IMG/VR virus record: IMGVR_UViG_3300042450_002433
Location: 1 to 64,000 of that record
DNA: 64,000 nt
From: a virus
Direction: 5' to 3' (one strand)
In this document: positions 4,993 to 61,757 of the stretch, piece after piece
How the letters are laid out: the number at the start of each line of letters is the position of its first letter
Numbering within the stretch: the stretch's first letter is position 1
Translations under genes and position numbers: made by a program
The notes under the pieces: generated by a model
What the model saw: the letters and a program-made list of their open reading frames with translations, nothing else
What the model was told of the DNA's origin: nothing
Database searches by the model: none

Positions 4993-5433
4993 GTGAAATC
5001 CTTTTCTTGCTATAGCATGGCAGAAGCCATCGGTAACACTCTCTACCTTGTTCGTGGTCTTCCAGGTTCAGGGAAGTCTACCTATGCAAAGACACTTGTA
5101 CCAACAGGGGCGCACTTTGAAGCCGATCAGTATTTCATGAAGGGTCAGAAGTATAACTTCGATCCCACAAAGTTAAAGGATGCCCATGCCGAGTGCCTTG
5201 CTCGTACACGCAAGGCAATGAATAGTGGCAATCATAAGATTGTTGCCGTATCCAATACCTTCACGATGAAGTGGGAGATGCAACCATACATCGACCTTGC
5301 AAAGTCTCTTGGATGGACGGTGCATGTTGTTCGCACAACGGGCAAATACCAATCCATTCATGGTGTTCCTCAGGATGCCATTGACCGAATGCAAAGTCGA
5401 TTCGAACCCTTTGCAGGAGAAGTGATCAAGTGA
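4993..5433 (+). CDS. P-loop kinase (AAA_33 / polynucleotide kinase-like)
   Basis: 146 residues from a GTG start preceded by AAGGAAAC. Walker A is GLPGSGKS at residues 22-29, followed by a lid-type segment and DRMQSRFEPF near the C-terminus, the arrangement of small predicted ATP/GTP kinases related to T4 PseT kinase and NEDD4-binding-protein-2-like kinases. No phosphatase domain is present. The N-terminus VKSFSCYSMAEA resembles the capsid-targeting peptide, although the candidate cut site is MAE rather than LxE or IxE. It overlaps the next start by 4 nt. The substrate is unknown. Confidence 0.85.
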   Translation: MKSFSCYSMAEAIGNTLYLVRGLPGSGKSTYAKTLVPTGAHFEADQYFMKGQKYNFDPTKLKDAHAECLARTRKAMNSGNHKIVAVSNTFTMKWEMQPYIDLAKSLGWTVHVVRTTGKYQSIHGVPQDAIDRMQSRFEPFAGEVIK

Positions 5434-5726
5434 AATCATTCGCTGACTATCTCTCCGAAGGCTCACATAGTTTCAAGGACTTCAAGGATCCATGGGCTAT
5501 CATGTCTCCCGAGGATCGCAAGGAAGCGAACCGCCTGACCATACTGATCTTGAAGGTGATGCCGAGTTCACCGAGGCAGAAGGAACTCCAAGCCAAGCGG
5601 GATGTGATATTCAAGAAGTATAAGATCGGCGAGGATTGGACAAAGGAATACAAGGGTTCCATTAACTGTAACAATCCAAAGGGTTTCTCTCAACGAGCGC
5701 ATTGTCAAGGAAAGAAGAAGCGATGA
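5430..5726 (+). CDS. Small putative capsid-targeted protein with CNNPKGFSQ motif
   Basis: 98 residues from a GTG start that overlaps the previous stop. MKSFADYLSEG is a clear capsid-targeting-type N-terminus with an LSE cut site at residues 8-10. The C-terminus carries CNNPKGFSQRAHCQGKKKR; related Cys/His-containing basic tails recur in virion-associated proteins of marine T4-like phages. The two Cys and one His could bind a metal. The basic tail could bind DNA inside the head. Function unknown. Confidence 0.8.
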   Translation: MKSFADYLSEGSHSFKDFKDPWAIMSPEDRKEANRLTILILKVMPSSPRQKELQAKRDVIFKKYKIGEDWTKEYKGSINCNNPKGFSQRAHCQGKKKR

Positions 5727-6211
5727 AGACCTATGCCGAACTAATAGACTTGCTCGAACTCTTCAACGAGCCATTCACCTTTGCGAAAGAATGGTCTGAT
5801 GGATATTCAATCGGGTATGAGTACAAAGGAGCAAAGGGTGGATTACTTGAAGTGACCTTTGGACTACAACCTGATACGGCGATTGTTAATTTTACTGTTA
5901 ATGATAGTATTGCTATTCGCGGTGAAGGAGATGCACCGCGAGTGTTTGCTTCGGTGATGGATGCATTCAAAAGATTCCTTGCGAAAAGGCAACCCAAGTA
6001 TTTGGTATTCAGCGCAAACAAGGCAGACTATGATTTGAAGAATCAGACACGCCGATCCACATCAAGACCGCGTGTTTATGGTGCGATGATCAAGCGACTT
6101 GCCCCACAGTTTGGATATAAGTTAAAGCAAGAAAAAGATGTTACGGATCGTGATGCCTTTGGCGGTAACTATGACTCTAGCACCTTTATCCTGCAAAAAA
6201 CAAAGAGATAA
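5723..6211 (+). CDS. Putative capsid-targeted protein, paralogous family A (member 1)
   Basis: 162 residues. The start at ATG 5723 overlaps the preceding stop (ATGA); an in-frame ATG at 5702 would add an unrelated tail. MKTYAELIDLLELF has an LLE site at residues 10-12. The C-terminal half shares a pattern with the products at 9050 and 12043: a VFASVMDAFKRF helix, a short strand (LVFSA), then SRPRVYGAMIKRLAPQFGY. This family is widespread in marine T4-like phages without an assigned function. The fold is probably alpha/beta. Confidence 0.8.
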   Translation: MKTYAELIDLLELFNEPFTFAKEWSDGYSIGYEYKGAKGGLLEVTFGLQPDTAIVNFTVNDSIAIRGEGDAPRVFASVMDAFKRFLAKRQPKYLVFSANKADYDLKNQTRRSTSRPRVYGAMIKRLAPQFGYKLKQEKDVTDRDAFGGNYDSSTFILQKTKR

Positions 6212-6214
6212 ATA
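6207..6214 (+). promoter_or_regulatory. Late-type promoter octamer
   Basis: GATAAATA overlaps the stop codon of the preceding gene and lies 6 nt before the GTG of the ADP-ribosyltransferase gene, which has no Shine-Dalgarno. Confidence 0.45.
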
Positions 6215-6220
6215 CTTGCC

Positions 6221-7126
6221 GTGAAGACCTACTTCCAACTCATTGAGGCAATTAAGCCCAAGCCTAGCAAGCCATTTACATTTCGTCTGCTCCCTGCCAA
6301 GCCGTGGACGATCTGTGATGTGTTGGCAAGCCCTACCCCCAAAGGTCTCATTACGATCTGCAAAGAAGGGGCTGAGGTATTCTATGACTCCGACCTGAAG
6401 ATGTTTGATGTCAATAAACTTCTAACCAATTATCCTGCATGGGTGAGACAGTTAGAAAAATACGGCTGGGCAATGGGTAATTTTTTCGATCTACAGGGAT
6501 CGCAGAAGATGTCTTATGTTTCCAAGATATTAGAAATGGCTGCGTGTAAAAATCGCGCCGAATGGACATACTGGACAGGTGGAAAAGTATATCGTGGACT
6601 TGGAAAAACCCCTGCCGATCTCAAGAACTATTCCTATACGGGGGAACACCTGAAAGCAGTTGGGGAAGATTGGCTCATCGGATCCACCACCTATAAGAGT
6701 AAATATGATATTCAGTCTTGGACTCCGAATATTAAAATTGGTGCTCGATTCGCAACATCTGCCGAAGACAACATCAACAAGAAAAACAGTATGTCCGCAA
6801 TGATAGAACTCGATATAGATCGATCAGATACATTTCTATCTCCACAGGTTATTCGTAAACTTTCAGAGTATCCTGGAGAAGACGAGGTATTGCGAGTAAA
6901 GAACAATGCTGTTCCTGTTGTGATTTATATCAGGCTAAAGGATATATTGTTCCATCTACAAACCAAGACTCCAAAGAATATACAGGGCAACGAGGATACC
7001 CATCTCCCATATATGATTAAACTTTTCGAAGGACTGATGGGATCTGCGAATGCCAAGAAGTTACTAGCCAATCCAACCGTATTTGCACAGATCAAAAAAC
7101 TAGTTAAATTTGATGTCAAACCCTAA
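6221..7126 (+). CDS. Putative capsid-targeted ADP-ribosyltransferase (Alt-like role)
   Basis: 301 residues from GTG. The three ADP-ribosyltransferase regions of the R-S-E class are in order: R125 in VYRG, S166-W-T168 at the start of a strand followed by GARFA, and E220-D-E222 in PGEDEVL, the ExE pair that marks arginine-type transferases. The N-terminus MKTYFQLIEAIK has LIE at residues 7-9, fitting the gp21-type cut site. T4 packages its Alt transferase in the head and injects it to modify host RNA polymerase; this protein has the motifs and the targeting peptide for an equivalent role, though the rest of the sequence does not look like Alt. It overlaps the next gene by 1 nt. The target is unknown. 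Confidence 0.8.
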   Translation: MKTYFQLIEAIKPKPSKPFTFRLLPAKPWTICDVLASPTPKGLITICKEGAEVFYDSDLKMFDVNKLLTNYPAWVRQLEKYGWAMGNFFDLQGSQKMSYVSKILEMAACKNRAEWTYWTGGKVYRGLGKTPADLKNYSYTGEHLKAVGEDWLIGSTTYKSKYDIQSWTPNIKIGARFATSAEDNINKKNSMSAMIELDIDRSDTFLSPQVIRKLSEYPGEDEVLRVKNNAVPVVIYIRLKDILFHLQTKTPKNIQGNEDTHLPYMIKLFEGLMGSANAKKLLANPTVFAQIKKLVKFDVKP

Positions 7127-7677
7127 TGAAGACCTACTTCCAACTCCTCCTTAGTATTAAAGAAGCCACCGCTGCACCTGTAGAGGTATCAGTTGGCAAG
7201 CGTAGTTGGGAGCAGTTGAGACAGGAGTTGCAACAGTTACTTGGTAGCGGAAGAAAACCAACCTATGCCGACATTGGTCACATCCCAGTTGAGAAGAAGC
7301 ACTACTCCATCTATGGAATCAAGAAGAAACTTCCTGTTCCATTTGAACTGTGGTGGACGGACGATGGCTCGACCATCAACAGAAAAAAGTCGGCAGGAGG
7401 TGGTGATGAGTTCCTAATGCACGGTGTTGCAGGAAAGACAGGACTGAATGGTTTTCTCAAGACCGTTGGTGGAGATCAGTCTCGCTACAAGGGACGCATC
7501 GATCATGAGCGCAAGGCAGTAACTGTGGTATTTGGCGGGGCATATGATTACAACAGCATTCTGCGTATGCGGGCATTGGAGAAGGGTATCCCCAATATCA
7601 TTCGCAAAATGAAACAGTTGTATCCCAACTATGCTCTGCACTATTGGGATACTGATGGGAAGGTGCAGTCACTATGA
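7126..7677 (+). CDS. Putative capsid-targeted protein of unknown function
   Basis: 183 residues. MKTYFQLLLSIKEATAAP nearly repeats the start of the preceding protein and has IKE at residues 11-13 as candidate cut site. Residues 25-45 form a Gln/Leu-rich helix. The C-terminal half has beta strands and ends with a helix (IPNIIRKMKQLYPNYALHYW) that weakly recalls the end of family A. Start and stop overlap both neighbours, so it is co-translated with the ADP-ribosyltransferase and metallopeptidase genes. Confidence 0.8.
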   Translation: MKTYFQLLLSIKEATAAPVEVSVGKRSWEQLRQELQQLLGSGRKPTYADIGHIPVEKKHYSIYGIKKKLPVPFELWWTDDGSTINRKKSAGGGDEFLMHGVAGKTGLNGFLKTVGGDQSRYKGRIDHERKAVTVVFGGAYDYNSILRMRALEKGIPNIIRKMKQLYPNYALHYWDTDGKVQSL

Positions 7678-9047
7678 AAACCTTCACAGAACTTATGGGA
7701 GAGATCCTACTCGAACGAGAACTCGACCGCCCAATGCGTGAGGCGGCGGGTCGTTCTTTTGATAAGTTCAAAAAGAACATCATGAGTGTTCTTCGTAAAT
7801 CGGTGAATGACTGTGCGAAAAATTTTCACAATACAGTTGATTTTAGACCATGGGGTGGAATAGGACGAGCATCAGCCACATCGTATCTGGTCAGTAGCAT
7901 ACAGAACAATCAACCATCATCTTATAAACTACGCCTGTACTTTGCGGATAAGTATGCAATCCTTACTTACTCTGTAGTGGACGAATCGCAGATTGTTCTT
8001 CCTTCGAATATTTCGATGAGTGCCTATAAACAAAATGTGCACAAGAGTAATATGCCATTATTGCTTAAGATTGAGTTGCTTGGTTCCTTTGGTGATTTTA
8101 AGGGATCGTATTTTTCAGGAAAGACATCTCAGGGAAACCCACTTGTTCAACTCGCGGGTATGAGTTCACTTCGACATGATGGAGGACATCCCTTTGAGGA
8201 AGCACTCATCGAATTCATCGATGGCAAGAAGGCAGGAAAATCAGCACAGGCACTCGTCCGTCCACTAAACAAGTGGCTTGATAAATTTGAGACAGAACTA
8301 TCTCATCTTCGTGATACCTATGTGCATGAGTTCATCCATCTGTTCGATGACTTTCGATATAAGTCAAAGACTAGTCATCCTGGAAACATCATGCGCGGAA
8401 TTAAATCTTCTCATGATAAGACAGACCTTTACAAGAAGGACTATTACATTAGTGATGCAGAGTGGAATGCATTCTTCCAAGGTGCTGCATCCTCAGTTGA
8501 GAATGCCATTGCTTCTTTCCTGATTGCAGCAACGAATGAACAGGCTGCGATAAAGGCATATAGATTCAACAAGAACTTTAACACGATGACTAATGGAGCG
8601 AAGTGCAAGGAAGTGGGCGACATCGTAATTCAAGATCTTTGGCGCAAGTTTGATGACAACCTTACAGAGCCATGGATATGGGAACACCTAAAGAATATGG
8701 GTATCGACAAACTTGGGCAAGGCAACATCCCTACCTTCTGCATGGCATTCGTATCATGGAAAGCATATAGCACAAGCAAATACTTCCTTGAAGATCCTGC
8801 GAAGAGGAAGAAGTTCTTGCTTCGCATCATGTCATTCACTCAAGACATTCGCAACATCATTGAGGAATACAGAGTTCGCATGAGTCAGGGAAAGATTCCT
8901 ACTGTTCAAGAGTTCAATCGCTCTAAGGCACAGTTTAGCCGCAAAGGGGATCCAACAAAAACGCATGACATATATTCACATCTCTATAGTGGACTGATGA
9001 TTGGCAAGAAGCCGTTTGATCCTACAGCAGTAGTAAAGGAATGGTAA
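7674..9047 (+). CDS. Putative capsid-targeted zinc metallopeptidase (HExxH)
   Basis: 457 residues. HEFIH at 218-222 within YVHEFIHLFDDF is a zinc-peptidase motif on a predicted helix; the third ligand is not obvious. MKTFTELMGEILLE has LLE at residues 12-14, in line with head targeting and cleavage. About 200 residues of alpha/beta sequence precede the motif and a long helical region follows. It overlaps the previous gene by 4 nt. Injected proteases are not part of the T4 scheme, so a host-directed or head-internal protease are both open. Not related to the HExxH protein at 1-746 beyond the motif. Confidence 0.8.
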   Translation: MKTFTELMGEILLERELDRPMREAAGRSFDKFKKNIMSVLRKSVNDCAKNFHNTVDFRPWGGIGRASATSYLVSSIQNNQPSSYKLRLYFADKYAILTYSVVDESQIVLPSNISMSAYKQNVHKSNMPLLLKIELLGSFGDFKGSYFSGKTSQGNPLVQLAGMSSLRHDGGHPFEEALIEFIDGKKAGKSAQALVRPLNKWLDKFETELSHLRDTYVHEFIHLFDDFRYKSKTSHPGNIMRGIKSSHDKTDLYKKDYYISDAEWNAFFQGAASSVENAIASFLIAATNEQAAIKAYRFNKNFNTMTNGAKCKEVGDIVIQDLWRKFDDNLTEPWIWEHLKNMGIDKLGQGNIPTFCMAFVSWKAYSTSKYFLEDPAKRKKFLLRIMSFTQDIRNIIEEYRVRMSQGKIPTVQEFNRSKAQFSRKGDPTKTHDIYSHLYSGLMIGKKPFDPTAVVKEW

Positions 9048-9049
9048 AG

Positions 9050-9535
9050 ATGAAATCATTCCGTCAACATCTTCACGAAATATTCAACTCCACTCCTATC
9101 CCATTAACAATGGTGAAGACACCGCTACACATGAACAGCGGTGGTGTAGTGTGGTACGGAAACTGGTCGGTGAATGGAAAGCCTCATTTGTTTGAAGCAT
9201 ATGGTCGCCCTATCAGATCCGATGATGAGGTTACGGGTTGGGTGTTTGGATTTACTGTTGATGACGAGGCTTCTGCACCACCTAATCAGGAAGCAGCGAT
9301 GAAATCTGAAACAGGACGAATATTCGCAACAGCCCTTGAGGCTCTTCGGCAACTTGTCAAAGAATATAGTCCAAAGATGATTCGTTTTACGGCAGCAAAA
9401 GAAAGAAAGAAAAATGATTCCCGTGTTCGCCTGTATAATTCTATGGTAAAGCGATTTGCAGGACAGCACGGATATAGATTAAAGGATCAGTCGGAGGATC
9501 AATTCGTCCAACTATATGTACTGGTAAAGCAATGA
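9050..9535 (+). CDS. Putative capsid-targeted protein, paralogous family A (member 2)
   Basis: 161 residues. The start at 9050 is preferred over an ATG at 9041 because AAAGGA lies 9 nt upstream and it gives MKSFRQHLHEIF with LHE at residues 8-10. The C-terminal half matches the 5723 product in order: IFATALEALRQL, IRFTAAK, SRVRLYNSMVKRFAGQHGY. The N-terminal half is a different beta-rich segment. Function unknown. Confidence 0.8.
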   Translation: MKSFRQHLHEIFNSTPIPLTMVKTPLHMNSGGVVWYGNWSVNGKPHLFEAYGRPIRSDDEVTGWVFGFTVDDEASAPPNQEAAMKSETGRIFATALEALRQLVKEYSPKMIRFTAAKERKKNDSRVRLYNSMVKRFAGQHGYRLKDQSEDQFVQLYVLVKQ

Positions 9536-9813
9536 AATCATTCAAAGAATATCTCGAAGAAAAGCGTGACTGCAAAGCAGAATACTTAAAGATGTATGGC
9601 GGCAGTAATCCTACAGCCAAACAGAAACTCGCAAGAAAGAAGAAGACATCGCGCAAGCGTATTCTTCGTGAACTTGGGCGCGAAGGCAAAAGCAATGATG
9701 GCAAGGAGATAGACCACAAAGATGGTAATGCCTTGAACAATCATCCAAGTAATATTCGAGTCATTAGTCGAGCAGAGAACCGCTCTCGAAACAACAATAA
9801 GTGGCGTAAGTGA
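9532..9813 (+). CDS. HNH endonuclease with capsid-targeting-type N-terminus
   Basis: 93 residues. The C-terminal half has an HNH pattern: EIDHKDGNALNNHPSNIRV with the DH pair, then N residues about 8-12 positions later, and a final R-rich tail. The middle is strongly basic, suited to DNA binding. MKSFKEYLEEKRD has LEE at residues 8-10. A free-standing HNH enzyme in a T4-like genome is usually a homing endonuclease, but the targeting peptide suggests that this one may travel in the head. It overlaps the previous stop by 4 nt and ends the 2764-9813 run. Confidence 0.8.
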   Translation: MKSFKEYLEEKRDCKAEYLKMYGGSNPTAKQKLARKKKTSRKRILRELGREGKSNDGKEIDHKDGNALNNHPSNIRVISRAENRSRNNNKWRK

Positions 9814-12042: not shown

Positions 12043-12804
12043 ATGAAATCTTTCAGTTCACATATCACCGAACTCTTTGATACCTCACACCCGTGGAGCG
12101 CAATGCAGACGGGCGGTGATCATGAGATCTATCGATTTGCTTTCGCAAAGATGCGAGGTGGAAAGATGATTCCATGTCCCATTGGTTCTGGTGGTCTTGA
12201 CATCGAAAAGTTTTATAGGGAAAACGGATTAGAGATCACAGGAAGAGATTCCAACAACATACCGCTTGTGAACGGAAAGCCAACACCTCTTCATGGAGTG
12301 GTATACGAAGTCGGACTTCATAGTCTTGCACACAACCCTACCCTCTATACCGACATGATGGAAAAATCAAACCTTGAGAAACCCGATATGTCGAAGGTGT
12401 GGGAACTGTACTTTCAACGAATGGATTCATTTGTAAAATGGAGTACGAATGCGCTTCCACATCGTTCGGGTTCACGATGGTATTGGTCTTATGACAATAC
12501 CGTAGGTGGTGGCGATGAAGATCTGAACATCATGAGCGGAGGAGAAGCAGCAAAGGTGTTTGGTACAGTTCTTGATATCACCAAGGCATTCGCGGCGAAA
12601 CACAATCCCAAGGGCATTCTTATCGGAACCAAAAGTACGGCAAAAGATGTACGGGGTCGGATATATTCGGGCATGGCAACTCGAAATGCAGGACAAGTCA
12701 TTCAAATTCCATACCCTCCACGCGATGGAATGAAGCAAGGAAACATGATTTGGTTCGACAAAATAAAGCAATTCAATCCGCTTGCAAATCAAGCAAAGGT
12801 GTGA
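12043..12804 (+). CDS. Putative capsid-targeted protein, paralogous family A (member 3, extended)
   Basis: 253 residues. MKSFSSHITELFD has ITE at residues 8-10. The C-terminal 90 residues follow the family A pattern (KVFGTVLDITKAF, ILIGTKS, VRGRIYSGMATRNAGQ), here preceded by an extra 150-residue region with several Trp and His. The GGGDEDLNI segment just before the shared domain is also seen in relatives in other marine phages as far as I can recall. Function unknown. Confidence 0.8.
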   Translation: MKSFSSHITELFDTSHPWSAMQTGGDHEIYRFAFAKMRGGKMIPCPIGSGGLDIEKFYRENGLEITGRDSNNIPLVNGKPTPLHGVVYEVGLHSLAHNPTLYTDMMEKSNLEKPDMSKVWELYFQRMDSFVKWSTNALPHRSGSRWYWSYDNTVGGGDEDLNIMSGGEAAKVFGTVLDITKAFAAKHNPKGILIGTKSTAKDVRGRIYSGMATRNAGQVIQIPYPPRDGMKQGNMIWFDKIKQFNPLANQAKV

Positions 12805-13876: not shown

Positions 13877-15337
13877 ATGAAATCTCTAACCTCATATATC
13901 AAATCATATACTGAAGAGATGGAAGTATGGGGTATTCCATTGATGGAAAAGAGTGACGGCACAGGCAAGCAGAGACATACTCTTACTGCATCGGGATGGA
14001 ACAAATCCTTTGTCGATGGATCATCCAATATATGGACACCCGTTGGCCCTCCTGAAGTTGTGTCGGCAGATGTAGCACCACCACCAAATGCTACGATCCT
14101 GAATTCGAAAAATAAGAGCAAGGTGTTTCTCATGAACCTGACTCTTCAAACAGATTCGGGCAATCGGATTGTTGTGTCCAAGTATCTGTCATCCGATGAG
14201 GGTGGTATCTCAAATACCGAATTCAAAATTAAAGTCGGGTTGAAGCGAACACGAGAGTCCTTCAAGATTAGCACCAAGCAACTGCTTGCGGGTGCACCAA
14301 CAATGGACATGGACATCGGTAGAGTCGGCGCACCCCAAGTAGAAAAGTTTTATGCATTCAGTGATGCGAATGTGTTGATTGATTTGGTTGTTAAAAATCT
14401 TGAGACACATCTTCAATCAAATACAAATCTTGTATCGGCAGTCGAGTCGTTTCTTAGTCGCGGATGCGATCATATGAATTGGCCCTCGGACACTCCCGAA
14501 TCTCTCAAGGTAGCAATAACACAGGTTCTATCCGAACTCATTGTTGGTGTGTGTCTTCTGAAGAATACCGCCTTCGTCCTATCAAGTAAAATTCCATTCA
14601 CAAGTTCGGTTGAATCGTTCTATCTTCCTGTAAAGGATTTTCTTTCGACCATTGACTTTGTGCTGAAGTTGCGCGATGGGAATATTGTTAAGTTCTCTTC
14701 GAAGGTCAAGGAGGGTGCTGCCGCAGCATTCGGCCCGCGACTCATATGGGCTGCTGTTACTTCGGCTCCAAATTCCCCCATTCACAGAGCAGCGAATCGA
14801 TTGTTGAAGGGAACAGAAATTGGTAAGTTCACCGACATTCTTAGATCACGAGAAAACAAATTGAAACAGGCTGCATATGAGTATGCCTTTTCCCTAATTG
14901 GAATGGGCAATGTGGATTCATGGGTAAAGAGTACCGCAAGTGCTAAATGTAATATTACAGGTATTTCTCAGAAAGAGCGAGAGGAACTGATTCAAAAAGT
15001 TTCTTCATATGCTGCAACTAAAAATCTAATGTCGAAGTCATACTTTAAAGCATTGCGAGATGGAGATGTTTGTGCTCTCTCGATTGTCGTTCGATATATC
15101 ATTGCCGATGCACTCAATAGCGATGCCAAAAGTCAAAAACCAATGTTGATGATTCTTAGAATGTATGAGTATTTCCAACTCCACATGGACAAGACGGCAT
15201 TCATGCGAACAGGATCCGTGAAGTTCTTCCTCAAGGGTCTGCGATCACACATCAGTAAAATTACGATTGACCCAGGTAAGGGTTCACTTGGGGACACATC
15301 AGGCTCGTATGGATTCCTCAACTTCAGACTTGAGTGA
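13877..15337 (+). CDS. Phage protein of unknown function, possible capsid-targeted
   Basis: 486 residues. MKSLTSYIKSYTEEMEV resembles the capsid-targeting start, but the nearest Glu site is YTE, not LxE or IxE. The sequence is mixed alpha/beta without recognised motifs: an N-terminal segment ending in a Pro-rich linker (about 60-75), a beta-rich part to about 150, and a long helical C-terminal part. It may belong to the same packaged class, but this is uncertain. Confidence 0.75.
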   Translation: MKSLTSYIKSYTEEMEVWGIPLMEKSDGTGKQRHTLTASGWNKSFVDGSSNIWTPVGPPEVVSADVAPPPNATILNSKNKSKVFLMNLTLQTDSGNRIVVSKYLSSDEGGISNTEFKIKVGLKRTRESFKISTKQLLAGAPTMDMDIGRVGAPQVEKFYAFSDANVLIDLVVKNLETHLQSNTNLVSAVESFLSRGCDHMNWPSDTPESLKVAITQVLSELIVGVCLLKNTAFVLSSKIPFTSSVESFYLPVKDFLSTIDFVLKLRDGNIVKFSSKVKEGAAAAFGPRLIWAAVTSAPNSPIHRAANRLLKGTEIGKFTDILRSRENKLKQAAYEYAFSLIGMGNVDSWVKSTASAKCNITGISQKEREELIQKVSSYAATKNLMSKSYFKALRDGDVCALSIVVRYIIADALNSDAKSQKPMLMILRMYEYFQLHMDKTAFMRTGSVKFFLKGLRSHISKITIDPGKGSLGDTSGSYGFLNFRLE

Positions 15338-18375: not shown

Positions 18376-18828
18376 ATGTATCATTATCAACGCCAAATTA
18401 TTGCTGAAGCCGCAAAGTACCAAAAAGACCCAACTCCAAAGGAAGATACTCCTATGAAGGATCCTGAGGGGGCTATGGCAATAACACAACTTCGAAGCAT
18501 TATCGAAAAGGCAAATGATATACTTCCTACCCTTAAGGCAGAGTCACAGTTAGAGGCATGGGTGCAAAGTAAGATATCTTTAGCAGACGATTATATTACT
18601 ACCGTAAGAGATCATATCAAGCAGAATGCTGATGTGGTGGACGAGTCGGCTCATGTGTCGGAGCAGATCATCAAGCCAACCCGTATGGAGGTGCAGAAGC
18701 ACTTCGATGCACAGACAGGTTCACCGCGAGATCGGGTGCTGTCTACCGAACGGGCACTAATGGTTTCGGAACTCATGGTTGGCGATGATGGGGTAGTGAG
18801 CACTTATAAATTCAATGATTCTCCTTGA
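18376..18828 (+). CDS. Putative virion-associated protein with IAE cut site
   Basis: 150 residues. The N-terminus MYHYQRQIIAEAAKYQ contains IAE at 9-11 followed by A, a strong (L/I)xE site. A helical domain AMAITQLRSIIEKANDILP ... LEAWVQSKISLADDYI (about residues 35-75) matches a module I have seen repeatedly in head or neck-region proteins of marine T4-like phages, but its function is not known. The next gene starts with the near-identical MINDIQRRILAEAAKF. Confidence 0.75.
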   Translation: MYHYQRQIIAEAAKYQKDPTPKEDTPMKDPEGAMAITQLRSIIEKANDILPTLKAESQLEAWVQSKISLADDYITTVRDHIKQNADVVDESAHVSEQIIKPTRMEVQKHFDAQTGSPRDRVLSTERALMVSELMVGDDGVVSTYKFNDSP

Positions 18829-19011: not shown

Positions 19012-20643
19012 ATGATTAATGATATCCAAAGAAGAATTTTAGCAGAAGCCGCCAAGTTTGGTGGCTCTAATATTTCAAGTGCACAGATAATTGCCAATGA
19101 ACTGAATGAAACAAATCATCAGTCATTCATGAATGGTGGTGCAGGGGGTGTAGCCACTTTCGGATTTGGCAAAGCACAGTTCGAAGGAAAGATGCGTCAA
19201 TTGCTCATGAAAATGGGCTTTGAAAAGGGCATCAACAAGATGGATATCAATGGCAACAAGATGGTTCTTTACTTTGCCAATAGTGCAAAGGCAAATGATT
19301 TTGTCATTACCTTTAATGGTCTTGTTAAGAGAAGCAGCAAGGGATCACCCGCAACGCTCAGTACCTCGTTTGACAAGATTAAGTCTCCTGCGGGAACGAA
19401 CGCAGTCGTTACGGTTGACTTCAGTATGATGAAGACCGAGGACTTGGAGAACGGATCGGATGTGTTTGTCATGCTTGAGGCTCTATATGAAAACAGCATC
19501 GAGGAAGCCAAGACAAAAAATACTCATGTTACAAGTGTTCCCGCAGGTGCTTCTGAAAAAGAATTTGCCAAGGCTCGTGCCGCGAATCCGTATCGAGTTC
19601 GTCTTGGCAAAGGTAAACCTGCTGGTGCACCCGCCGATAAGGTGAAAGAAGATATTGAAGAGAGTGCTTCAAAGGCTGCACTCGAAGACTTCATGTATGC
19701 CCTACCCAAGGCTGCTATTGAGGAACTTCGACCTGTGATGAAGATGAAGCAGGGTGTTGGACGCATGGCAAAGATCACCGCTGTACTCAAGAAGCACGGA
19801 ATCACACAGAAGTTTATGGGTGCATTTCCCACATCAGTAGTGAATGATTACTTCGACACCTTCCACGGTGAGAGCGTTGAACTCGAATCTGACGGAATCA
19901 ATGAATCAATGAATAATTATCTTGCCTTCTACAACGGCAAGAAGATCACCGTTCAGGCAGAAACTTCATACAAGGCTCAACTCAAGGCTATTGAGATGTT
20001 CAAGGCTCCCGCAAGCAAGAAACACATGGTCAATGTAAAACTTGCAGGTGGAGGTGCATTAGCCAACAATGAGAGCGTTGAGGAAAATGAGGAAAAGATT
20101 GACGAGCAAAGTGTTGCAAGACGATTAGGACAAACTATTGGGGCACTTCGACACGGCAAGCCAACTCCTAAAGATCGGTTAGACGATTTAACCGTTGAAA
20201 GAAAACGAAGAGACTATCAGAAAAAACTTAAAAATGATCCAGTCTTTCAAGCGCAAAATGCTGCTGCCAAAAAGGAAGAGCAAGATTATATCAAAGCAGA
20301 AATTGCACGCTTGAAAACCTTTTTGACAAAGGAAGAAGTCGAGAGCGTTGAGGAATCACTTGCTCAACCTGACGAAAAGGTCATTGGTATTTTCTATGAG
20401 AAGACACAGAATAATGTATTTGAGTATCGCATGTCAACCGATCCATGGGGCAAGAGCCACGGTCTTCCACACGAAGTCTGTGTCGGCCCAAGGAACTTTG
20501 TAAGCGGAGCAAAAGTCAATTGGAGAGCAGCGAATGTCAAAGCCACCGTCTGCTATATTGCCGTTGATGAGTTGGAAGATGGCAAGCCCGACATCGACAA
20601 GTGGAACATCAAGAAGCACTTTAAGTATGTGAAGGCAAACTGA
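19012..20643 (+). CDS. Large multi-segment virion precursor-like protein
   Basis: 543 residues. MINDIQRRILAEAAKF has LAE at 10-12 followed by A. Several compact segments are joined by acidic linkers containing ESVE (near residues 285, 365 and 445), the layout of head precursor proteins cut by the prohead protease. One segment, YLAFYNGKKITVQAETSY (about 303-320) followed by a KKHMVNVKLA strand, is a small domain common in marine T4-like phage head proteins. The last 100 residues are a separate domain containing two Cys. Probably packaged; activity unknown. Two promoters, early and late type, precede it. Confidence 0.75.
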   Translation: MINDIQRRILAEAAKFGGSNISSAQIIANELNETNHQSFMNGGAGGVATFGFGKAQFEGKMRQLLMKMGFEKGINKMDINGNKMVLYFANSAKANDFVITFNGLVKRSSKGSPATLSTSFDKIKSPAGTNAVVTVDFSMMKTEDLENGSDVFVMLEALYENSIEEAKTKNTHVTSVPAGASEKEFAKARAANPYRVRLGKGKPAGAPADKVKEDIEESASKAALEDFMYALPKAAIEELRPVMKMKQGVGRMAKITAVLKKHGITQKFMGAFPTSVVNDYFDTFHGESVELESDGINESMNNYLAFYNGKKITVQAETSYKAQLKAIEMFKAPASKKHMVNVKLAGGGALANNESVEENEEKIDEQSVARRLGQTIGALRHGKPTPKDRLDDLTVERKRRDYQKKLKNDPVFQAQNAAAKKEEQDYIKAEIARLKTFLTKEEVESVEESLAQPDEKVIGIFYEKTQNNVFEYRMSTDPWGKSHGLPHEVCVGPRNFVSGAKVNWRAANVKATVCYIAVDELEDGKPDIDKWNIKKHFKYVKAN

Positions 20644-21880: not shown

Positions 21881-22171
21881 ATGAAGAGTTTTCTCCAACA
21901 TGTCATGGAAAATACAACGGCAAACATGGTCTACTTTGGAACAAACGGTGCAGGGTTTGCCGTTGACACTGTATCGTCTAACTTCGATGTTGATCAGTGG
22001 GGAGAAAAACATGACAACATGAAACCATGGGAAGTTCGAAATGCAGAAGATGCTACCACCCGAAGAACTCATCTTTTACGATGGATGAAAGCCTCAAGCA
22101 AATTCCAAGCACGAGCAGTCAATGACAGCAGCGTACCACTAACTCCAGATTGGCAGTCAAGAAAACGATGA
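21881..22171 (+). CDS. Putative capsid-targeted protein of unknown function
   Basis: 96 residues. MKSFLQHVMENTTANMV fits the capsid-targeting form, with VME at residues 8-10 (Val in place of Leu/Ile). The remainder is polar with a small strand-rich core and a basic C-terminus. It overlaps the next gene by 4 nt. Confidence 0.7.
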   Translation: MKSFLQHVMENTTANMVYFGTNGAGFAVDTVSSNFDVDQWGEKHDNMKPWEVRNAEDATTRRTHLLRWMKASSKFQARAVNDSSVPLTPDWQSRKR

Positions 22172-23094
22172 AGACCTTTAACATATATCTCAATGAAAGA
22201 TACGATGGCGATGGCGATTGTATGGATGCCGCAGCAAACTATATGATGCGATGCCATTCTGCTTTCTTTGGGGAACAGGAAAAGAATATGAAAGGTGCGG
22301 TTCTCGTCCATGCACTTGTTTGGGGTCAGGGTACTTGTATGGGAATGCGATTCCCTCATGCGTGGGTTGAGAACGGAGATACGGTTATTGACAAATCAAA
22401 CGGACGAGATATCCGTATGGACAAAAGAGTATATTATGCGATGGGGCAGGTTAAGCCAAAGGAAACAGGTACATATAAAGTCTACACATATCAAGAGATG
22501 AAGAAGAAGTTAACTTCGACTCGTCATTATGGCCCATGGGATCTTGATGAACGCCTTGAAGAAACTACCATCTCAAGCAAAAGACAAATTGGTAAGCGAA
22601 ATAGACAAATCAGTTCAAGTCTTTTATCTGCACTCAAAGAAAATGTAGAAGAGGGAATCGTAACTGATCGTCCGACAACGGGACACTATCAAGGCAACCG
22701 ACAGTTATCGCGACAAAGTGTCGCAACAAATGTTCCTATGGTTTCGTGGAATGATCTCAAGCGACTAGAGAGTGTTCTTGATAATATGTTTGTTGCTGCT
22801 AAACTCGATATCAAGTTCACCAAACATTTTTTTGAACGAATGAATGGAAGTCGTGGATATGGCAGCAATGTCAGCATCGCAGAAATTCAAGATGCCTTTC
22901 GAAAAACTTATGCGAAGTATGCACAAAAGATTTACTCACATCCTGCCGATTGGAAGGCAATCATATTGGATGTCGGCAAAAGTCTTAATATGCCATTCAC
23001 TCTTGAGTGGGACGGTAAGATGAAAAAGATGGTAATGCTCACCGCGATGAAGAAGCAAAACTTTATGAGTCCCGATCCTAAGTTGCCCGTATGA
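22168..23094 (+). CDS. Putative capsid-targeted two-domain protein: cysteine hydrolase-like plus toxin-like C-terminus
   Basis: 308 residues. The start at 22168 (ATGA overlap) gives MKTFNIYLNERYDGDG with LNE at residues 8-10. Residues 15-95 have GDCMDAAANYM, then VHALVWGQG and FPHAWVENGDTVIDKSNG: a Cys, a His in HAWVE and an Asp in order, as in papain-fold hydrolases. The C-terminal domain (about 215-308) has FTKHFFERMNG ... EIQDAFRKTY ... NMPFTLEWDGKMKKMVMLTAMKK (quoted in pieces), a domain common at the ends of marine phage proteins and faintly like BrnT/RelE-type toxins. The two domains are joined by a Ser/Arg/Gln-rich linker. Both functions are inferred. Confidence 0.75.
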   Translation: MKTFNIYLNERYDGDGDCMDAAANYMMRCHSAFFGEQEKNMKGAVLVHALVWGQGTCMGMRFPHAWVENGDTVIDKSNGRDIRMDKRVYYAMGQVKPKETGTYKVYTYQEMKKKLTSTRHYGPWDLDERLEETTISSKRQIGKRNRQISSSLLSALKENVEEGIVTDRPTTGHYQGNRQLSRQSVATNVPMVSWNDLKRLESVLDNMFVAAKLDIKFTKHFFERMNGSRGYGSNVSIAEIQDAFRKTYAKYAQKIYSHPADWKAIILDVGKSLNMPFTLEWDGKMKKMVMLTAMKKQNFMSPDPKLPV

Positions 23095-26207: not shown

Positions 26208-26743
26208 TGGATGACATGAAATCATTCACGCATCATATCAAAGAAGCATCCCTTGGACAGATTTACTGTGACATGGATGGTGTTCTTGTAGACATCATTG
26301 GTGGCATCTCAAAGTTGTATAAGATTTCGGGATTGTCGAATAGAAATTTTGACAGTATCGTAGATCCACTTAAGTCTAAAATTGATAAAGAACATCCACA
26401 CCTATTTGCAGAACTTCCATGGACAGCAGATGGGAAAGTGTTGTGGAGATATATCTCCAAGCACAATCCAAACATCTTATCTGCACATACGAATACATGG
26501 CAACCTGACTCGAAGCAAGATAAGATTCGTTGGATCGACAAGCACCTCGATCCCAAACCCGCAATGAATCATATTGTTATACGAAGAGACAAGGAAAAAT
26601 TTGCTGTTGCAAATGGTGTGCCCAATATACTGATTGATGATTGGAAACTTAATATTGCTGAATGGACGAAAGCAGGTGGTATTGGAATCTTACATAAGAA
26701 TACCGCCGACACAATTGCTACTCTGAAAAAACTTGGTTATTAA
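26207..26743 (+). CDS. Putative capsid-targeted HAD-family phosphatase (5'-nucleotidase-like)
   Basis: 178 residues from 26207, or 175 from ATG 26216. YCDMDGVLVD is HAD motif I with the nucleophile and acid/base Asp pair; ILIDDWKLNI near residue 145 supplies motif IV Asp residues; SAHTNTW may provide motif II. Size and motifs match deoxyribonucleotidase-like phage proteins. MKSFTHHIKEASLG has IKE at 8-10 followed by A. AGGAG 7 nt before 26207 supports that start on a read-through message, while the late-type octamer and the conserved peptide support 26216. Substrate probably nucleotides. Confidence 0.8.
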   Translation: MDDMKSFTHHIKEASLGQIYCDMDGVLVDIIGGISKLYKISGLSNRNFDSIVDPLKSKIDKEHPHLFAELPWTADGKVLWRYISKHNPNILSAHTNTWQPDSKQDKIRWIDKHLDPKPAMNHIVIRRDKEKFAVANGVPNILIDDWKLNIAEWTKAGGIGILHKNTADTIATLKKLGY

Positions 26744-27884: not shown

Positions 27885-28237
27885 GGGGTCGAACAGGTAT
27901 CGAATGCATGAAGACTGATGTGTGATGCGCTAAGAGGAACCATGCTAGGCTCTTAAACTCGTATGGAAATAACAACTGCCAGATTTAATAAGAAGCAGTC
28001 ACGCCGTTTGGCTCTCGCAGCCTGACGCACTCGATCATCCGACTCCTTTAGGATGATTGGGTAAAACAAAGGATGGGTCTTTAGGAATGGGAGTGCCAAT
28101 AAAGACCGAGAATAAAGGCTCCAAATCTGATCCGCTAAGTCGCCATCAGCGGCGGGTCTGAATAAAGTGATGGATATTAGCGTAGTAGGCAGCACAGTAA
28201 GCATGACATCACGGGGGTTCGATTCCCCCCGACTCCA
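27885..28237 (+). ncRNA. ssrA: Transfer-messenger RNA (tmRNA)
   Basis: About 353 nt. The tRNA-like ends are GGGGTCG (27885-27891) and CGACTCC (28230-28236) with discriminator A, and a T-arm GGGGGTTCGATTCCCCCC, followed by no CCA. The tag frame ends at the TGA at 28023-28025 with RLALAA, the typical ALAA-type degradation signal. Read upstream in frame from 27963 it gives MEITTARFNKKQSRRLALAA; the exact resume codon (ATG, GAA or the codon before) cannot be fixed by eye. tmRNA with SmpB rescues stalled ribosomes and tags the peptide for host ClpXP. No smpB gene is present in the window, so host SmpB must be used. Confidence 0.93.
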
Positions 28238-57489: not shown

Positions 57490-58689
57490 ATGCTGTCATT
57501 CAAACAAGCAAACAGAGTTCTTTCCGAAGAAGTAGTTCGAAATAAGCATCTAGACCATATAGAAGATCTGATGCTTCTTGAGGGTGAAAAAGGCTTAAAG
57601 TTGGCTATTGCATTCCTCAAAGATATTACAGAAAGCCTGAAAACAGGCTCGACTTCTTTAGGACTCTCCACCAAATGGGATGGGAAACCTGCTATTGTGT
57701 GTGGGATTAATCCCGAAAACAATAAGTTTTTTGTTGCTACCAAGGGAGCATTTAGCAAAACTGTCTCTGCATATCACACCGAAGCAGAAATACGGAAAGG
57801 TGTGTCGATTTCCGATCTTGCCGCAAAATTGATCGAGTGCTTAAAGTATCTGCCAGGACTTGGCATCAAGGGAGTATTGCAGGGCGACTTGATGTTTACG
57901 ATGGATTCCAAAAAATCACAGACGATTGATGGAAAAGAATATATTACTTTTGCTCCCAATACGATCATGTATGCAATTGAAAAGGACAGTGCCATTGGGA
58001 AATCGGTTTCCTCTGCAAAACTTGGAATTGCTTTTCATACCGTCTATAGTGGAAAAACGATGCAGGAGTTATCTGCTGTCTCCTTCAACTTTGATGCTAG
58101 TACCCTGAAAAAGAATGCAAATGTGTGGTTCACTGACCCCAACATATATGACATCACGGCTGCACTTCTCAAGCCTGATGAATATGGCAAACTTATGGGC
58201 ATGATCAAAGACTGTGAAGGAAAATCAAAAAAGGTATCGCCGTTCCTGAAGGTTCTTCTTTCCAATGCACAGTTAGTTGAATACATCCTTCCATATATAA
58301 ATGCCACCATTAATGGCGGTCTTTCACAATTTTCTGCCCGTGGTCTTAAGTTGAATTTGGAAACCAAGTTAAACAAGGACATTGAAAAACTAAAGACAGA
58401 AAAAGGCAAGCAGGGCAAAAGAGATATACTGAACAAGTTGCTTGCCTTTGTTGATGCATACGAATCACAGTTCAATTCTATGTTTGAACTACATAATCTT
58501 ATCGCCAAAGCAAAAGAAATTTTGCTCGGTAAGTTCTATATGCTGTCTAGTTTCGGGCATTTCTTCGTGGATGACAACGGGATTTCTCCAACAGATCCTG
58601 AGGGTATTGTGGTTTCTCGTTCAGGAAGAGTCACTAAATTGGTAAATCGACTACGATTTAGTAGACAAAACAGGAAGGTAAACTCGTGA
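57490..58689 (+). CDS. Putative capsid-targeted nucleic-acid ligase-like nucleotidyltransferase
   Basis: 399 residues. LSTKWDGKPAIVCG contains the ligase motif I KxDG with K62 as the candidate adenylated lysine; DPEGIVVSR with E371 fits motif IV and RLRFSRQN motif V is poor. This matches the DUF6267-type proteins of marine T4-like phages. MLSFKQANRVLSEEVV has LSE at residues 11-13. An RNA or DNA ligase or a capping-like transferase is possible; catalytic activity is not proven because motif V lacks a clear Lys pair. It overlaps the next gene by 4 nt. Confidence 0.78.
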   Translation: MLSFKQANRVLSEEVVRNKHLDHIEDLMLLEGEKGLKLAIAFLKDITESLKTGSTSLGLSTKWDGKPAIVCGINPENNKFFVATKGAFSKTVSAYHTEAEIRKGVSISDLAAKLIECLKYLPGLGIKGVLQGDLMFTMDSKKSQTIDGKEYITFAPNTIMYAIEKDSAIGKSVSSAKLGIAFHTVYSGKTMQELSAVSFNFDASTLKKNANVWFTDPNIYDITAALLKPDEYGKLMGMIKDCEGKSKKVSPFLKVLLSNAQLVEYILPYINATINGGLSQFSARGLKLNLETKLNKDIEKLKTEKGKQGKRDILNKLLAFVDAYESQFNSMFELHNLIAKAKEILLGKFYMLSSFGHFFVDDNGISPTDPEGIVVSRSGRVTKLVNRLRFSRQNRKVNS

Positions 58690-61600
58690 TAGAGCGTTTC
58701 TTACATCGAATTGACGAAGCAAAAAAAGACACAGCAGTTATTGCTTTCGGCAGAATGAACCCCCCGACCATCGGTCACGGTGTCTTGGTAGACAAGATTG
58801 TTTCCGAAGCGCAGAAGCACAATGCAGATCATTTCATATTTGCATCTGAAACACAAGACTCAAAGAAGAACCCCCTATCACATAAGCAAAAGGTTGCATA
58901 CCTTAAGAAGTTTTTTCCTAAGGGCAACTTTCCTGTAGGAATGGCAAAGGATCCGTATACTGCCGTTCTATATGTGTGCTCATTGGGATATAAGAACATC
59001 ATCATGGTTGCGGGAAGTGACCAAGTCGAAAACTTTAAAAACATTGCCAAGTATAAGGGCAAGGTTGCAGATCGTGATCCTAAGAAGCGTGTATATTCAT
59101 TTGAAAAATTCGAAGTAGTTCAGGCGGGTGAGGCACGGGATGATGACTCTCAAGGTGTTGAGGGAATGTCTGCTTCCAAGATGAGATCTGCTGCTTTCGA
59201 TGGAGACTTTAAAAAGTTTGCCACGGGCGTTCCAGGTAAGGATAATGCCACCAAGAAGAAGATGTACAGCGATGTTCGTAAGGGATTGAGTCTTGGGGAG
59301 TCATATATCTCAGAGGCTGTAAACCCAAGTGACAAGGTAACAATCCTTGCACTAACTTCTTCGGAAAAAGATCTATCCGATACAATCGAAAAGATGCAGG
59401 AAATCTGCAAGAAGCGCAAAATTGAATTCTATGCAGTGAAGACTTCTAAAGCACAAGTAGAAATTTCAAATGTTACTTCGAAGAAAATCACTATCAAGAA
59501 TTATGACGGTGAAGGTAAAGATATCACTGTTATCCCAAGCGACACAGTAGCAGTTGTTCGTGGTGGTGTGATGAATAGTGATATCGGTGTTGCTATCATG
59601 ACCATCTTGCAGAACAATGGAGTGTTCATGATCAATGAGCGTGGAGGAATGGAACTCTGTGCAAACAAACTAGAAACTGCAATTGCTCTCAAGAAACACA
59701 ATCTCCCACACCCACGCACAACATTTGTTGCAGACGAAAGCAATATTGAAACTGCCGTTAAGGAAATTGGTGGTAAGTTCCCCGTCATCGTAAAGACTCT
59801 TACGGGGGCTGAAGGCATCGGCGTGTCCAAGATTGAAAGCATGGAAAGCCTGAAGTCTGTTCTACAAACTCTATGGAAATACAATGCCGAAATCATTATG
59901 CAGGAATTCCTGCCTGATTTCAAGAATGATGTTCGCAGCATCTGCCTGAATGGTAAAATTTTTGCCTGTGCAAAGCGGGATAAGGCTCCTAAGGATTTCC
60001 GCACAAACATTGCCCGAGGTTCAAAGGGTGGTGCATTCCAACTCTCTGATGAAGAAATCAAGTTGGTGGAGGAAGCCGCTCGGGTTAGCAAGTGCTACTA
60101 TGTCGGAGTTGATCATGTAATCAATGATGGTAAGCCATACATCATTGAAATGAATGCAAGCCCAGGCAGTGGTAATATCTACTACCGCTATTATGAAGAC
60201 GGCAAGGGCAAGAACAATGTCGAGGGCAAAGAGTTGGTCGAAGATTTTGTTGAATATATTCTCAACAAATCCAATTGGAAACTGTTCTCCAACCTCACTG
60301 TTCGTGAAACAGTTAAGATTGATGGAGTCGAATATGAAGCCAAGGTCGATACAGGCAACAGTGGCTACAATATGATTCATGGCGAAGACATCAAAGACAA
60401 TGGAAACCACACGGTTACCTTCAAACTGTCGAATGGTAAAAAGATTACCAAGAAAATCGTCAGTCGAATTATTGTCAAGAGTGGTATTGGGGAGAAGAAG
60501 CGACTTGTTATCTTCATGGACATTGAATTCCATGGAAAGAAATACCCAAACATCAAATTCTCAATTGGTGATCGCAACCATATGTCCACCAAAGTCCTTC
60601 TCGGTCTGCAATTCCTGAGCAAGACAGGAATGTTGGTTGATCCTGCGGAGGCAATATACCCACAGAATCAAACGAAAAAAGAAGAACATGTCAATCTTAA
60701 TAGCAATACACTTTATGAAAAACTCACAAAAAACGGACAGTTAAAAGAGTTAAACAATCGATACGAACAGGACGATGCATTCGAACGCCTTGCGAAGATC
60801 GATCAGAGCGATACAACAAACAACAATAAGATTCGCCTTTCTATTGCATATGAAGAACGCTGCCTGACCCGCAATATGCAGGATGGGGCATATCTAGCAC
60901 GAACCTATATTGAATTCCTCAAAGAGATTCGCAATTCTGAGTTGGGTTCGAATCAGCCTAAGACTGATATCAACGAAGACTTCGAATTCTTTTTACTTGA
61001 AGTTAGCCCACCCAAAGGTGCTGCACGAAGTTTCTCAAAGGATGAAAAAACCAAAGCATCATTCCGAAAACAATATGGTAAGCGGTGGAAGGAAGTGTTC
61101 TATGCGACTGCATGGAAGATGCATGGAGAAGATGTAGAGCCGTCTGAGACATGGCTTGATGAGGCTAAGAAAATCAACAATGTGTTGAAATGGACTTCTA
61201 TGAGTAAGAGAGGCCCGTTACTCATCGGCACCGATAAGATTGTAAAAACCTACAAGCATGACACCCCTGGCGAGCGGAAAGAAATTGAAGAAGATAAGCC
61301 TTGTTGGGTAGGGTTTAAACAATTGGGAATGAAGATGAAGAATGGGAAAAAAGTTCCTAATTGTGTGTCCGTAAAGGAAGATACTTCTGAAGAGGAGATG
61401 TCGGATCTCTATAAGGAATGGCAAAAACTTGTAAATATGTCGGGCAAGGAGATTGATACATTCCTTGATTCTGATGACGGAACTGAGGCAGGACTGTCCC
61501 GCAAGGAGGCAGGTAAGGCAGGTGCAGACGGTGGTAAAATTAGTACAGGTCGAGATTCTGCCCGTGCAATCATTCGAATGCTAGATACCCCCATGGAAAA

Positions 61601-61757
61601 ATGGTCTGATAATGATTGGAAATGGGCAGGGAAGCAAGTCAATTTCATCAATCGAATGAAAGGCGCAAAAGGGCCTTTGAGAGACGAAGACAAAAAACCT
61701 ACTCGTAAATTGTTAGCACTTAAGGTATGGGGACACAACCCCGAAAAGGGATCATAA
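58686..61757 (+). CDS. Multidomain protein: nucleotidyltransferase, RimK-like ATP-grasp, aspartic-protease-like
   Basis: 1,023 residues. MIERFLHRIDEAKKD has IDE at 9-11 followed by A. Residues 15-200: cytidylyltransferase fold with GRMNPPTIGH (22-31) and MSASKMR (about 160-166), as in NMN adenylyltransferase. Residues about 300-520: ATP-grasp with MELCANKLETAIAL, FPVIVKTLTGAEGIGVSK and IIEMNASPGSGN, closest to RimK-type glutamate ligases. Residues about 535-655: VDTGNSGYNMIH, a DTG site like the RimB/retropepsin family. Residues 700-1023: basic helical modules (FRKQYGKRWKEVFYATAWK; WVGFKQLGMKMKNGKKVPNC), as in virion proteins of marine phages. RimK and RimB domains occur as neighbours in bacteria; here they are fused to a nucleotidyltransferase. 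The order of domains suggests a polyprotein cut in the head. Activities are inferred. Confidence 0.8.
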   Translation: MIERFLHRIDEAKKDTAVIAFGRMNPPTIGHGVLVDKIVSEAQKHNADHFIFASETQDSKKNPLSHKQKVAYLKKFFPKGNFPVGMAKDPYTAVLYVCSLGYKNIIMVAGSDQVENFKNIAKYKGKVADRDPKKRVYSFEKFEVVQAGEARDDDSQGVEGMSASKMRSAAFDGDFKKFATGVPGKDNATKKKMYSDVRKGLSLGESYISEAVNPSDKVTILALTSSEKDLSDTIEKMQEICKKRKIEFYAVKTSKAQVEISNVTSKKITIKNYDGEGKDITVIPSDTVAVVRGGVMNSDIGVAIMTILQNNGVFMINERGGMELCANKLETAIALKKHNLPHPRTTFVADESNIETAVKEIGGKFPVIVKTLTGAEGIGVSKIESMESLKSVLQTLWKYNAEIIMQEFLPDFKNDVRSICLNGKIFACAKRDKAPKDFRTNIARGSKGGAFQLSDEEIKLVEEAARVSKCYYVGVDHVINDGKPYIIEMNASPGSGNIYYRYYEDGKGKNNVEGKELVEDFVEYILNKSNWKLFSNLTVRETVKIDGVEYEAKVDTGNSGYNMIHGEDIKDNGNHTVTFKLSNGKKITKKIVSRIIVKSGIGEKKRLVIFMDIEFHGKKYPNIKFSIGDRNHMSTKVLLGLQFLSKTGMLVDPAEAIYPQNQTKKEEHVNLNSNTLYEKLTKNGQLKELNNRYEQDDAFERLAKIDQSDTTNNNKIRLSIAYEERCLTRNMQDGAYLARTYIEFLKEIRNSELGSNQPKTDINEDFEFFLLEVSPPKGAARSFSKDEKTKASFRKQYGKRWKEVFYATAWKMHGEDVEPSETWLDEAKKINNVLKWTSMSKRGPLLIGTDKIVKTYKHDTPGERKEIEEDKPCWVGFKQLGMKMKNGKKVPNCVSVKEDTSEEEMSDLYKEWQKLVNMSGKEIDTFLDSDDGTEAGLSRKEAGKAGADGGKISTGRDSARAIIRMLDTPMEKWSDNDWKWAGKQVNFINRMKGAKGPLRDEDKKPTRKLLALKVWGHNPEKGS

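What the first reader, a model, noticed from the sequence alone, without database searches (positions are those of the whole stretch)
6221..7126. Putative packaged ADP-ribosyltransferase unlike T4 Alt in sequence
R125, S166-W-T168 and E220-x-E222 are in order and spacing for an R-S-E ADP-ribosyltransferase, and the N-terminus has the capsid-targeting form with LIE at 7-9. In T4, Alt is injected and modifies host RNA polymerase. An Alt-like role from a 301-residue, otherwise unfamiliar protein would extend this class.
Basis: partly seen in the sequence, partly recalled or inferred. Interest (0 to 1): 0.8.

Follow-up and report, generated by a model that had tools for sequence, protein, structure and literature searches.

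The report
Capsid-tagged phage ADP-ribosyltransferase family
A virus of bacteria appears to carry, inside its head, a previously unlisted kind of enzyme that would tag host molecules with ADP-ribose at the start of infection, as one of about a dozen proteins sharing the same short "load me into the head" tag.

Summary
In detail: the 301-aa frame at 6221-7126(+) has R125, S166-W-T168, E220-D-E222 and LIE at 7-9. Motif spacing alone is weak (520 of 5000 shuffles match); relatives decide it. Fourteen family members from seven virus records, 17-32% identical to the window protein, all keep R125, S166, E220 and E222. A model of residues 60-301 (pLDDT 77) ranks ADP-ribosyltransferases in all 20 top structural rows. 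T4 Alt, ModA and ModB show no sequence match; no Pfam, NCBIfam or PHROGs family fits. A late-promoter-like motif lies just upstream. Best reading: a new ADP-ribosyltransferase family, made late, packaged by a T4-like tag and injected. Packaging, activity and target are inferred; this record shows no gp21 or gp23. New variant of a known kind; one relative carries six copies.

The parts
6221..7126 (+). ADP-ribosyltransferase-like gene, 301 aa, GTG start
6221..6247 (+). T4-type capsid-targeting-like tag MKTYFQLIE, predicted cut after LIE (residues 7-9)
   Evidence: cut site by analogy with PMC9026906
6208..6214 (+). late-promoter-like motif ATAAATA, 6 nt before the start codon
   Evidence: literature motif
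6593..6595 (+). R125 codon (VYRG), invariant in 14 of 14
6689..6724 (+). family signature TYKSKYDIQSWT (residues 157-168), contains S166-W-T168
6878..6886 (+). E220-D-E222, both Glu invariant in 14 of 14
5430..5726 (+). tagged ORF, 98 aa (MKSFADYLSE)
5723..6211 (+). tagged ORF, 162 aa (MKTYAELIDLLE), related to 9050 and 12043
7126..7677 (+). tagged ORF, 183 aa (MKTYFQLLLSIKE)
7674..9047 (+). tagged ORF, 457 aa (MKTFTELMGEILLE) with a conserved HExxH
9050..9535 (+). tagged ORF, 161 aa (MKSFRQHLHE)
9532..9813 (+). tagged ORF, 93 aa (MKSFKEYLEE), HNH endonuclease domain
12043..12804 (+). tagged ORF, 253 aa (MKSFSSHITE)
13877..15337 (+). tagged ORF, 486 aa (MKSLTSYIKSYTEE), no [LI]xE
21881..22171 (+). 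tagged ORF, 96 aa (MKSFLQHVME), no [LI]xE
22168..23094 (+). tagged ORF, 308 aa (MKTFNIYLNE)
26216..26743 (+). tagged ORF, 175 aa (MKSFTHHIKE), NT5C-type deoxynucleotidase domain

Best explanation
The gene encodes a mono-ADP-ribosyltransferase of the R-S-E type. It is made late in infection, loaded into the prohead through a T4-type capsid-targeting sequence, trimmed after Leu-Ile-Glu-9 by a gp21-type protease, and injected with the DNA to modify a host macromolecule, most likely on arginine because of its E-x-E motif (that rule is recalled). Shown here: the conserved catalytic residues, the ART-like fold of the model, the shared N-terminal tag on 12 ORFs, the late-promoter-like motif, and gp21- and gp23-type genes in three related records. 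Inferred: activity, packaging, cleavage, injection and target.
For: Catalytic residues invariant in 14 of 14 members at 17-32% identity. Model pLDDT 77.4, pTM 0.76; 20 of 20 top VIA-align rows are ART-superfamily entries, best Z 7.3, next unrelated row 3.6; 4 viral-model matches at E<=0.001; family profile against phiN3 PHIN3_124 E=2.8e-4 over the R and SWT blocks. Tag: 12 ORFs against 0.34 expected; [LI]xE in 10 of 12 against 15 of 120 other ORFs; the tag form on all 12 family members whose N-terminus is in the record. gp23 and S77 protease in 3 of 8 records that carry the family. Late-promoter-like motif 5-6 nt upstream in the window, L008 and L018.
Against: No activity or virion data. Neither gp21 nor gp23 found in the window's own record. 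Foldseek found no solved structure at E<=0.001, and Z under 8 can be a common arrangement. The Glu of the tag is at residue 9, not 10; 3 of 12 family N-termini lack [LI]xE. The loose tag pattern was written after seeing the window. Only three ART orthologs of the ten upstream regions checked besides the window's own show the motif in the same place: window, L008 and L018 (2 of 10 plus the window).
Confidence: 0.74

Rival explanations
1. It is an active ART but is made and used inside the cell, like T4 ModA and ModB, and is not packaged; the shared N-terminus serves another purpose, such as binding a common partner.
For: No virion data; this record shows no prohead protease; T4 itself has two unpackaged ARTs (literature passage).
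Against: The tag matches T4 IPII/IPIII letter by letter in form and keeps the processing site; the upstream motif is of the late type, whereas ModA/ModB are early (recalled).
Confidence: 0.15
2. It has the ART fold and is packaged, but acts as an NAD glycohydrolase or modifies nucleic acid or a small molecule rather than a protein, for example to counter NAD-based defence.
For: ART-fold enzymes include KptA- and DarT-type members (passages); KptA is among the top structural rows; no substrate evidence exists.
Against: E-x-E is kept in 14 of 14, the form typical of arginine-modifying ARTs (recalled); the best structural rows are the protein-modifying toxin Vis.
Confidence: 0.07
3. It is not an ART at all; the three motifs are a coincidence of spacing in an unrelated phage protein.
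For: The bare spacing occurs in 520 of 5000 shuffles; no library or PDB-sequence match.
Against: All four catalytic residues invariant in 14 divergent members and an ART-only top of the structural ranking.
Confidence: 0.04

Closest known systems
T4 Alt (gpAlt, NP_049811.1)
   Same: Phage ART with STS-like and E-x-E motifs that, by the record's note, is in the capsid and enters with the DNA; N-terminal [LI]xE (LITE)
   Different: 682 aa against 301; no sequence match; N-terminus MELITELFDED is not of the MK[ST][FY] form
T4 internal proteins IPI, IPII, IPIII
   Same: N-terminal tag MKTYQEFIAE / MKTFKEF, late, packaged and injected (literature passages); IP genes lie beside tRNA genes as here
   Different: IPs are small inhibitors of restriction enzymes, not ARTs; T4 carries three, this record 12 tagged ORFs
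T4 ModA and ModB
   Same: Small R-S-E ARTs of a T4-type phage
   Different: No sequence match (probability 0.1 and 1.8); no capsid tag
Sinorhizobium phage phiN3 PHIN3_124 (A0A0F6WCN0, unnamed)
   Same: RG, SWT-x5-A-x-RF and E-x-E-V-L; best viral-model match; E=2.8e-4 to the family profile; T4-type phage
   Different: 167 aa, no capsid tag at the annotated start, lacks the TYKSxYxxQ block
Vis toxin ART of Vibrio splendidus (4xzk, 4y1w)
   Same: Best structural rows, Z 7.3 and 7.2 over 135-137 residues
   Different: 16-18% identity; bacterial, not from a phage head

Membership tests
ART superfamily, R-S-E clade | Catalytic Arg, Ser-x-[Ser/Thr] and [Glu/Gln]-x-Glu in order, conserved | tested here: met
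   R125, S166, E220, E222 invariant in 14 of 14; residue 168 is S, T or A in members
ART superfamily, R-S-E clade | ART fold | tested here: met
   Model of residues 60-301; 20 of 20 top VIA rows are ART entries. Caveat: Z 7.3, Foldseek PDB nothing at E<=0.001
ART superfamily, R-S-E clade | The three motifs meet in one NAD site | not testable with these tools
   Coordinates of the model and residue-level alignments were not available
ART superfamily, R-S-E clade | NAD-dependent transfer activity | not testable with these tools
   needs an assay
T4 Alt family | Sequence homology to T4 Alt | tested here: not met
   hhalign probability 0.1 with 7 and with 14 members
T4 Alt family | Long N-terminal part before the ART domain (682 aa in all) | tested here: not met
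   301 aa; members 232-429 aa
T4 Alt family | Packaged in the head and injected | not testable with these tools
   only the tag was seen
T4 ModA / ModB | Sequence homology | tested here: not met
   hhalign probability 0.1 and 1.8
T4-type capsid-targeting-sequence protein | N-terminal tag with bulky residues at 4 and 7 and [LI]xE | tested here: met
   Y4, L7, LIE 7-9; 12 ORFs against 0.34 expected. Glu at 9 rather than 10
T4-type capsid-targeting-sequence protein | Prohead protease of the gp21 type in the same phage | tested here: inconclusive
   Not found in this record, which also lacks gp23; found in 3 of 8 records of the family
T4-type capsid-targeting-sequence protein | Late expression | tested here: inconclusive
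   Late-promoter-like motif 6 nt upstream; no transcript data
Pfam, NCBIfam and PHROGs families | Match over cut-off to a listed ART family | tested here: not met
   14 members scanned; no family matched more than one member and none is an ART

The most novel reading that the evidence does not exclude
A clade of uncultured T4-type phages uses a ten-residue capsid tag as an interchangeable shipping label. It loads a dozen or more different effectors (ART, HExxH protease, HNH nuclease, nucleotidase and unknowns) into one head, and diversifies the ARTs to as many as six per genome, each aimed at a different host target or defence. One virion would then deliver a combinatorial set of modifications before any phage gene is transcribed.
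Probability: 0.5. Interest if true: 0.8.

Novelty: new variant of a known kind. Interest (0 to 1): 0.64.

Why it matters
T4 Alt is the classic injected ADP-ribosyltransferase, and a survey (PMC9503650, passages read) infers head packaging of phage ARTs from gene context and fusions. Here the label can be read in the protein itself: all 12 family members with an N-terminus in the record carry a tag of the T4 form. If the tag works, 'which phage proteins are injected?' becomes a sequence search, a dozen uncharacterised candidates lie next to this gene, and the six copies in one relative suggest that the injected enzymes diversify against varied host targets.

Tried and rejected
Rejected: 'the spacing of R, S-x-T and E-x-E shows an ART'. 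Rejected: membership of the Alt or ModA/ModB families by sequence. Rejected as chance: a PDB-sequence match to PNGase F (E=0.017) and Pfam PF22761 (E=0.027), the latter under its cut-off and shared by no other member.

Led nowhere: direct searches with the protein in viral contigs and phages. Of the 14 aligned members, 7 were run by tblastn against 50,697 phage records: none had a match at E<=1. The first AF2 job, with 3 sequences, was poor (pLDDT 51). Foldseek against PDB gave nothing at E<=0.001. T4 Alt, ModA and ModB do not appear in the VIA list, which does not exclude them. A profile of 8 members matched no PDB sequence. The signature pattern matched 17 stretches in genome contigs, none of this family; in viral contigs 6 loci, 5 of this family and 1 chance match, L019; a tighter second pattern 6 loci, all of this family; a variant with AGY for the last Ser none. 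These are lower bounds: the record of L012 fits the first pattern but was not returned. The 457-aa neighbour found no relatives by scan and one short match in phages. Two scripts failed (on file names, on parsing). Literature listings showed me no description of this family, and one search found no paper with all its terms; this does not prove that none exists.

Full report
WHAT IS THERE. The window is the first 64 kb of a 147,569-base virus record of T4 type: DNA polymerase (best annotated relative cyanophage S-SSM4, 49% identity), UvsX-like recombinase and DnaB-like helicase. The frame at 6221-7126(+) encodes 301 aa from GTG. On their own they are weak: a loose R / S-x-[ST] / E-x-E pattern is met by 30 of 149 open frames of the record and by 520 of 5000 shuffles; with RG, S[FWY][ST] and E-x-E-[VIL] it falls to 2 of 149 and 0 of 5000.

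FINDING THE FAMILY. The protein has no useful Pfam, PHROGs, PDB-sequence or annotated-phage match, and a direct scan of viral contigs found none. Through the neighbouring AAA ATPase I reached a 168-kb relative (L008) whose gene in the same neighbourhood is 37% identical in the matched part. An alignment of the two reached L012. The shared block TYKSxYxxQSW[ST], searched as DNA, brought L015, L017, L018 and L020, and a tighter pattern L038. As a control, the first pattern in 257 billion bases of bacterial and archaeal contigs gave 17 matches, none of the family. A profile then showed further copies in the same records. By my count there are 15 copies in 8 records: G000 1, G002 1, G004 2, G005 1 (broken frame), G006 2, G007 6, G008 1 (partial), G009 1 (partial). 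Four of the G007 copies are contiguous (L020:1315-5592, minus strand).

IS IT AN ART. Fourteen copies (all but the broken one) align with invariant C109, R125, G126, Y158, S160, Q165, S166, W167, F177, E220, E222 and R225, at 17-32% identity to the window protein. The second structure job, on residues 60-301 with seven relatives, gave pLDDT 77.4 and pTM 0.76; the first, with three sequences, gave pLDDT 51. Foldseek against PDB found nothing at E<=0.001, but realignment of its candidates put 20 of 20 top rows on ART-superfamily entries or holotoxins that contain one (by title; TreX and the PltC holotoxin are recalled as such), best the Vis toxin at Z 7.3 over 135 residues; the next, unrelated, row has Z 3.6. 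Z under 8 alone can be a common arrangement; the unanimity of the list together with the invariant catalytic residues makes it convincing. Among viral models four matches had E<=0.001; the best, an unnamed phiN3 protein, has RG, SWT and E-x-E itself and matches the family profile with E=2.8e-4, probability 41%. T4 Alt, ModA and ModB do not match the profile (probabilities 0.1, 0.1 and 1.8; Alt again 0.1 with 14 members). Over the 14 members no family of NCBIfam, Pfam or PHROGs matched more than one, and none listed is an ART (the best PHROG, one member at E=8e-4, is 'minor head protein').

THE TAG. T4 capsid targeting needs the first ten residues of IPIII, residues 4 and 7 for targeting and 8 and 10 for processing, and gp21 cuts after L/I-x-E (PMC9026906, passages). 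T4 IPII and IPIII start MKTYQEFIAE in the fetched record. In the window's record 12 of 2987 possible starts fit MK[ST][FYL]..[FLYHIM][ILVM]; all lie on the + strand between 5430 and 26216, against a mean of 0.34 and a maximum of 2 in 100 shuffles; a stricter T4-derived form gives 6 against 0. The loose form was written after seeing the window; the controls are independent: in 76 kb of T4 it finds ipII and ipIII only (ipI and Alt are missed), in S-SSM4 1 and in 200 kb of phiN3 3, none of these four strict. Without the first 14 residues the 12 proteins are unrelated by blastp except one trio, 5723, 9050 and 12043. [LI]xE occurs in the first 16 residues of 10 of 12, against 15 of 120 other ORFs. 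The family's N-termini agree: the 12 that are in the record (window plus 11) start [MV][KQR]-x-[FYL], and 9 of 12 have [LI]xE within 18 residues. Some of these starts, L054 and L055 above all, were chosen by me inside longer frames, so this count leans towards the tag. In the window protein the Glu is residue 9, not 10.

HEAD GENES AND TIMING. Neither gp23 (PF07068) nor the S77 protease (PF03420) was found in the window's record; both were found in G002, G006 and G009, 3 of 8 records. In G002 and G006 the gp23 protein has LRE or LKE at residues 45-47, in the manner of LTE in T4 gp23. So the cutting enzyme exists in the clade, but I could not show it in this record. T4 and cyanophages use TATAAATA and NATAAATA as late promoters (PMC2984593, passages). 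Here [CA]TAAATA lies within 60 nt before an ORF start in 39 of 51 cases, [GT]TAAATA in 3 of 36. The window's ART gene has ATAAATA ending 6 nt before its start, and L008 and L018 have the motif 5 nt before theirs; the other 8 of 10 family upstream regions checked do not show it, most of them being inside gene runs.

MECHANISM. Late synthesis, loading into the prohead by the tag, cutting after LIE, injection with the DNA and transfer of ADP-ribose to a host target form the simplest chain that uses every part. The first three steps rest on analogy with T4 and on motif statistics; injection and transfer are inference. E-x-E and the likeness to Vis, solved with agmatine (title of 4xzk), favour arginine (recalled rule). 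The target is open; RNA polymerase is a candidate by analogy only.

NOVELTY. Packaged ARTs as such are known (Alt) and expected to be common (PMC9503650, passages). T4-like phages are known to carry several tagged internal proteins, at least ten across relatives (PMC12373910, passages). New here are an ART family outside the libraries searched, the T4-form tag on its members, its duplication up to six times in one genome, and a cluster of a dozen tagged genes in one record. I file it as a new variant of a known kind.

Noticed in passing
7674-9047 (+): The tagged 457-aa neighbour has an HExxH motif (H218-E219-x-I221-H222) and a later E263, all invariant in three relatives at 47-55% identity: a candidate packaged zinc metalloprotease without a Pfam match.
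   Followed up: partly
6208-6221; also 2752, 21869, 23273, 26201: The late-promoter-like motif [CA]TAAATA often ends only 3-8 nt before the start codon (also in L008 and L018), closer than a normal leader allows; the late transcripts of these genes may be leaderless.
   Followed up: partly
L020:1315-5592 (-) and L053:1209-3567 (-): One 119-kb relative (G007) carries six ART paralogs in two clusters, four of them contiguous.
   Followed up: partly
27885-28237 (+): The phage record carries a tmRNA gene among nine tRNA genes.
   Followed up: no
12043-12081 (+): The tagged protein at 12043 starts MKSFSSHITELFDTS, and T4 Alt starts MELITELFDED: the stretch ITELFD is shared around the likely cut site.
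   Followed up: no
18376-18828 and 19012-20643 (+): Two ORFs start MYHYQRQIIAEAAKY and MINDIQRRILAEAAKF, similar to each other and to T4 gp22 MLKEQLIAEAQKI; perhaps other head-targeted or scaffold-like proteins.
   Followed up: no
L062:29598-30101 (+), phiN3 PHIN3_124: An annotated hypothetical protein of Sinorhizobium phage phiN3 is probably an R-S-E ART too.
   Followed up: partly
58686-61757 and 66774-84002 of the record: A 1023-aa cytidyltransferase-like protein, and long repetitive frames beyond the window that look like tail-fibre or collagen-like genes.
   Followed up: no
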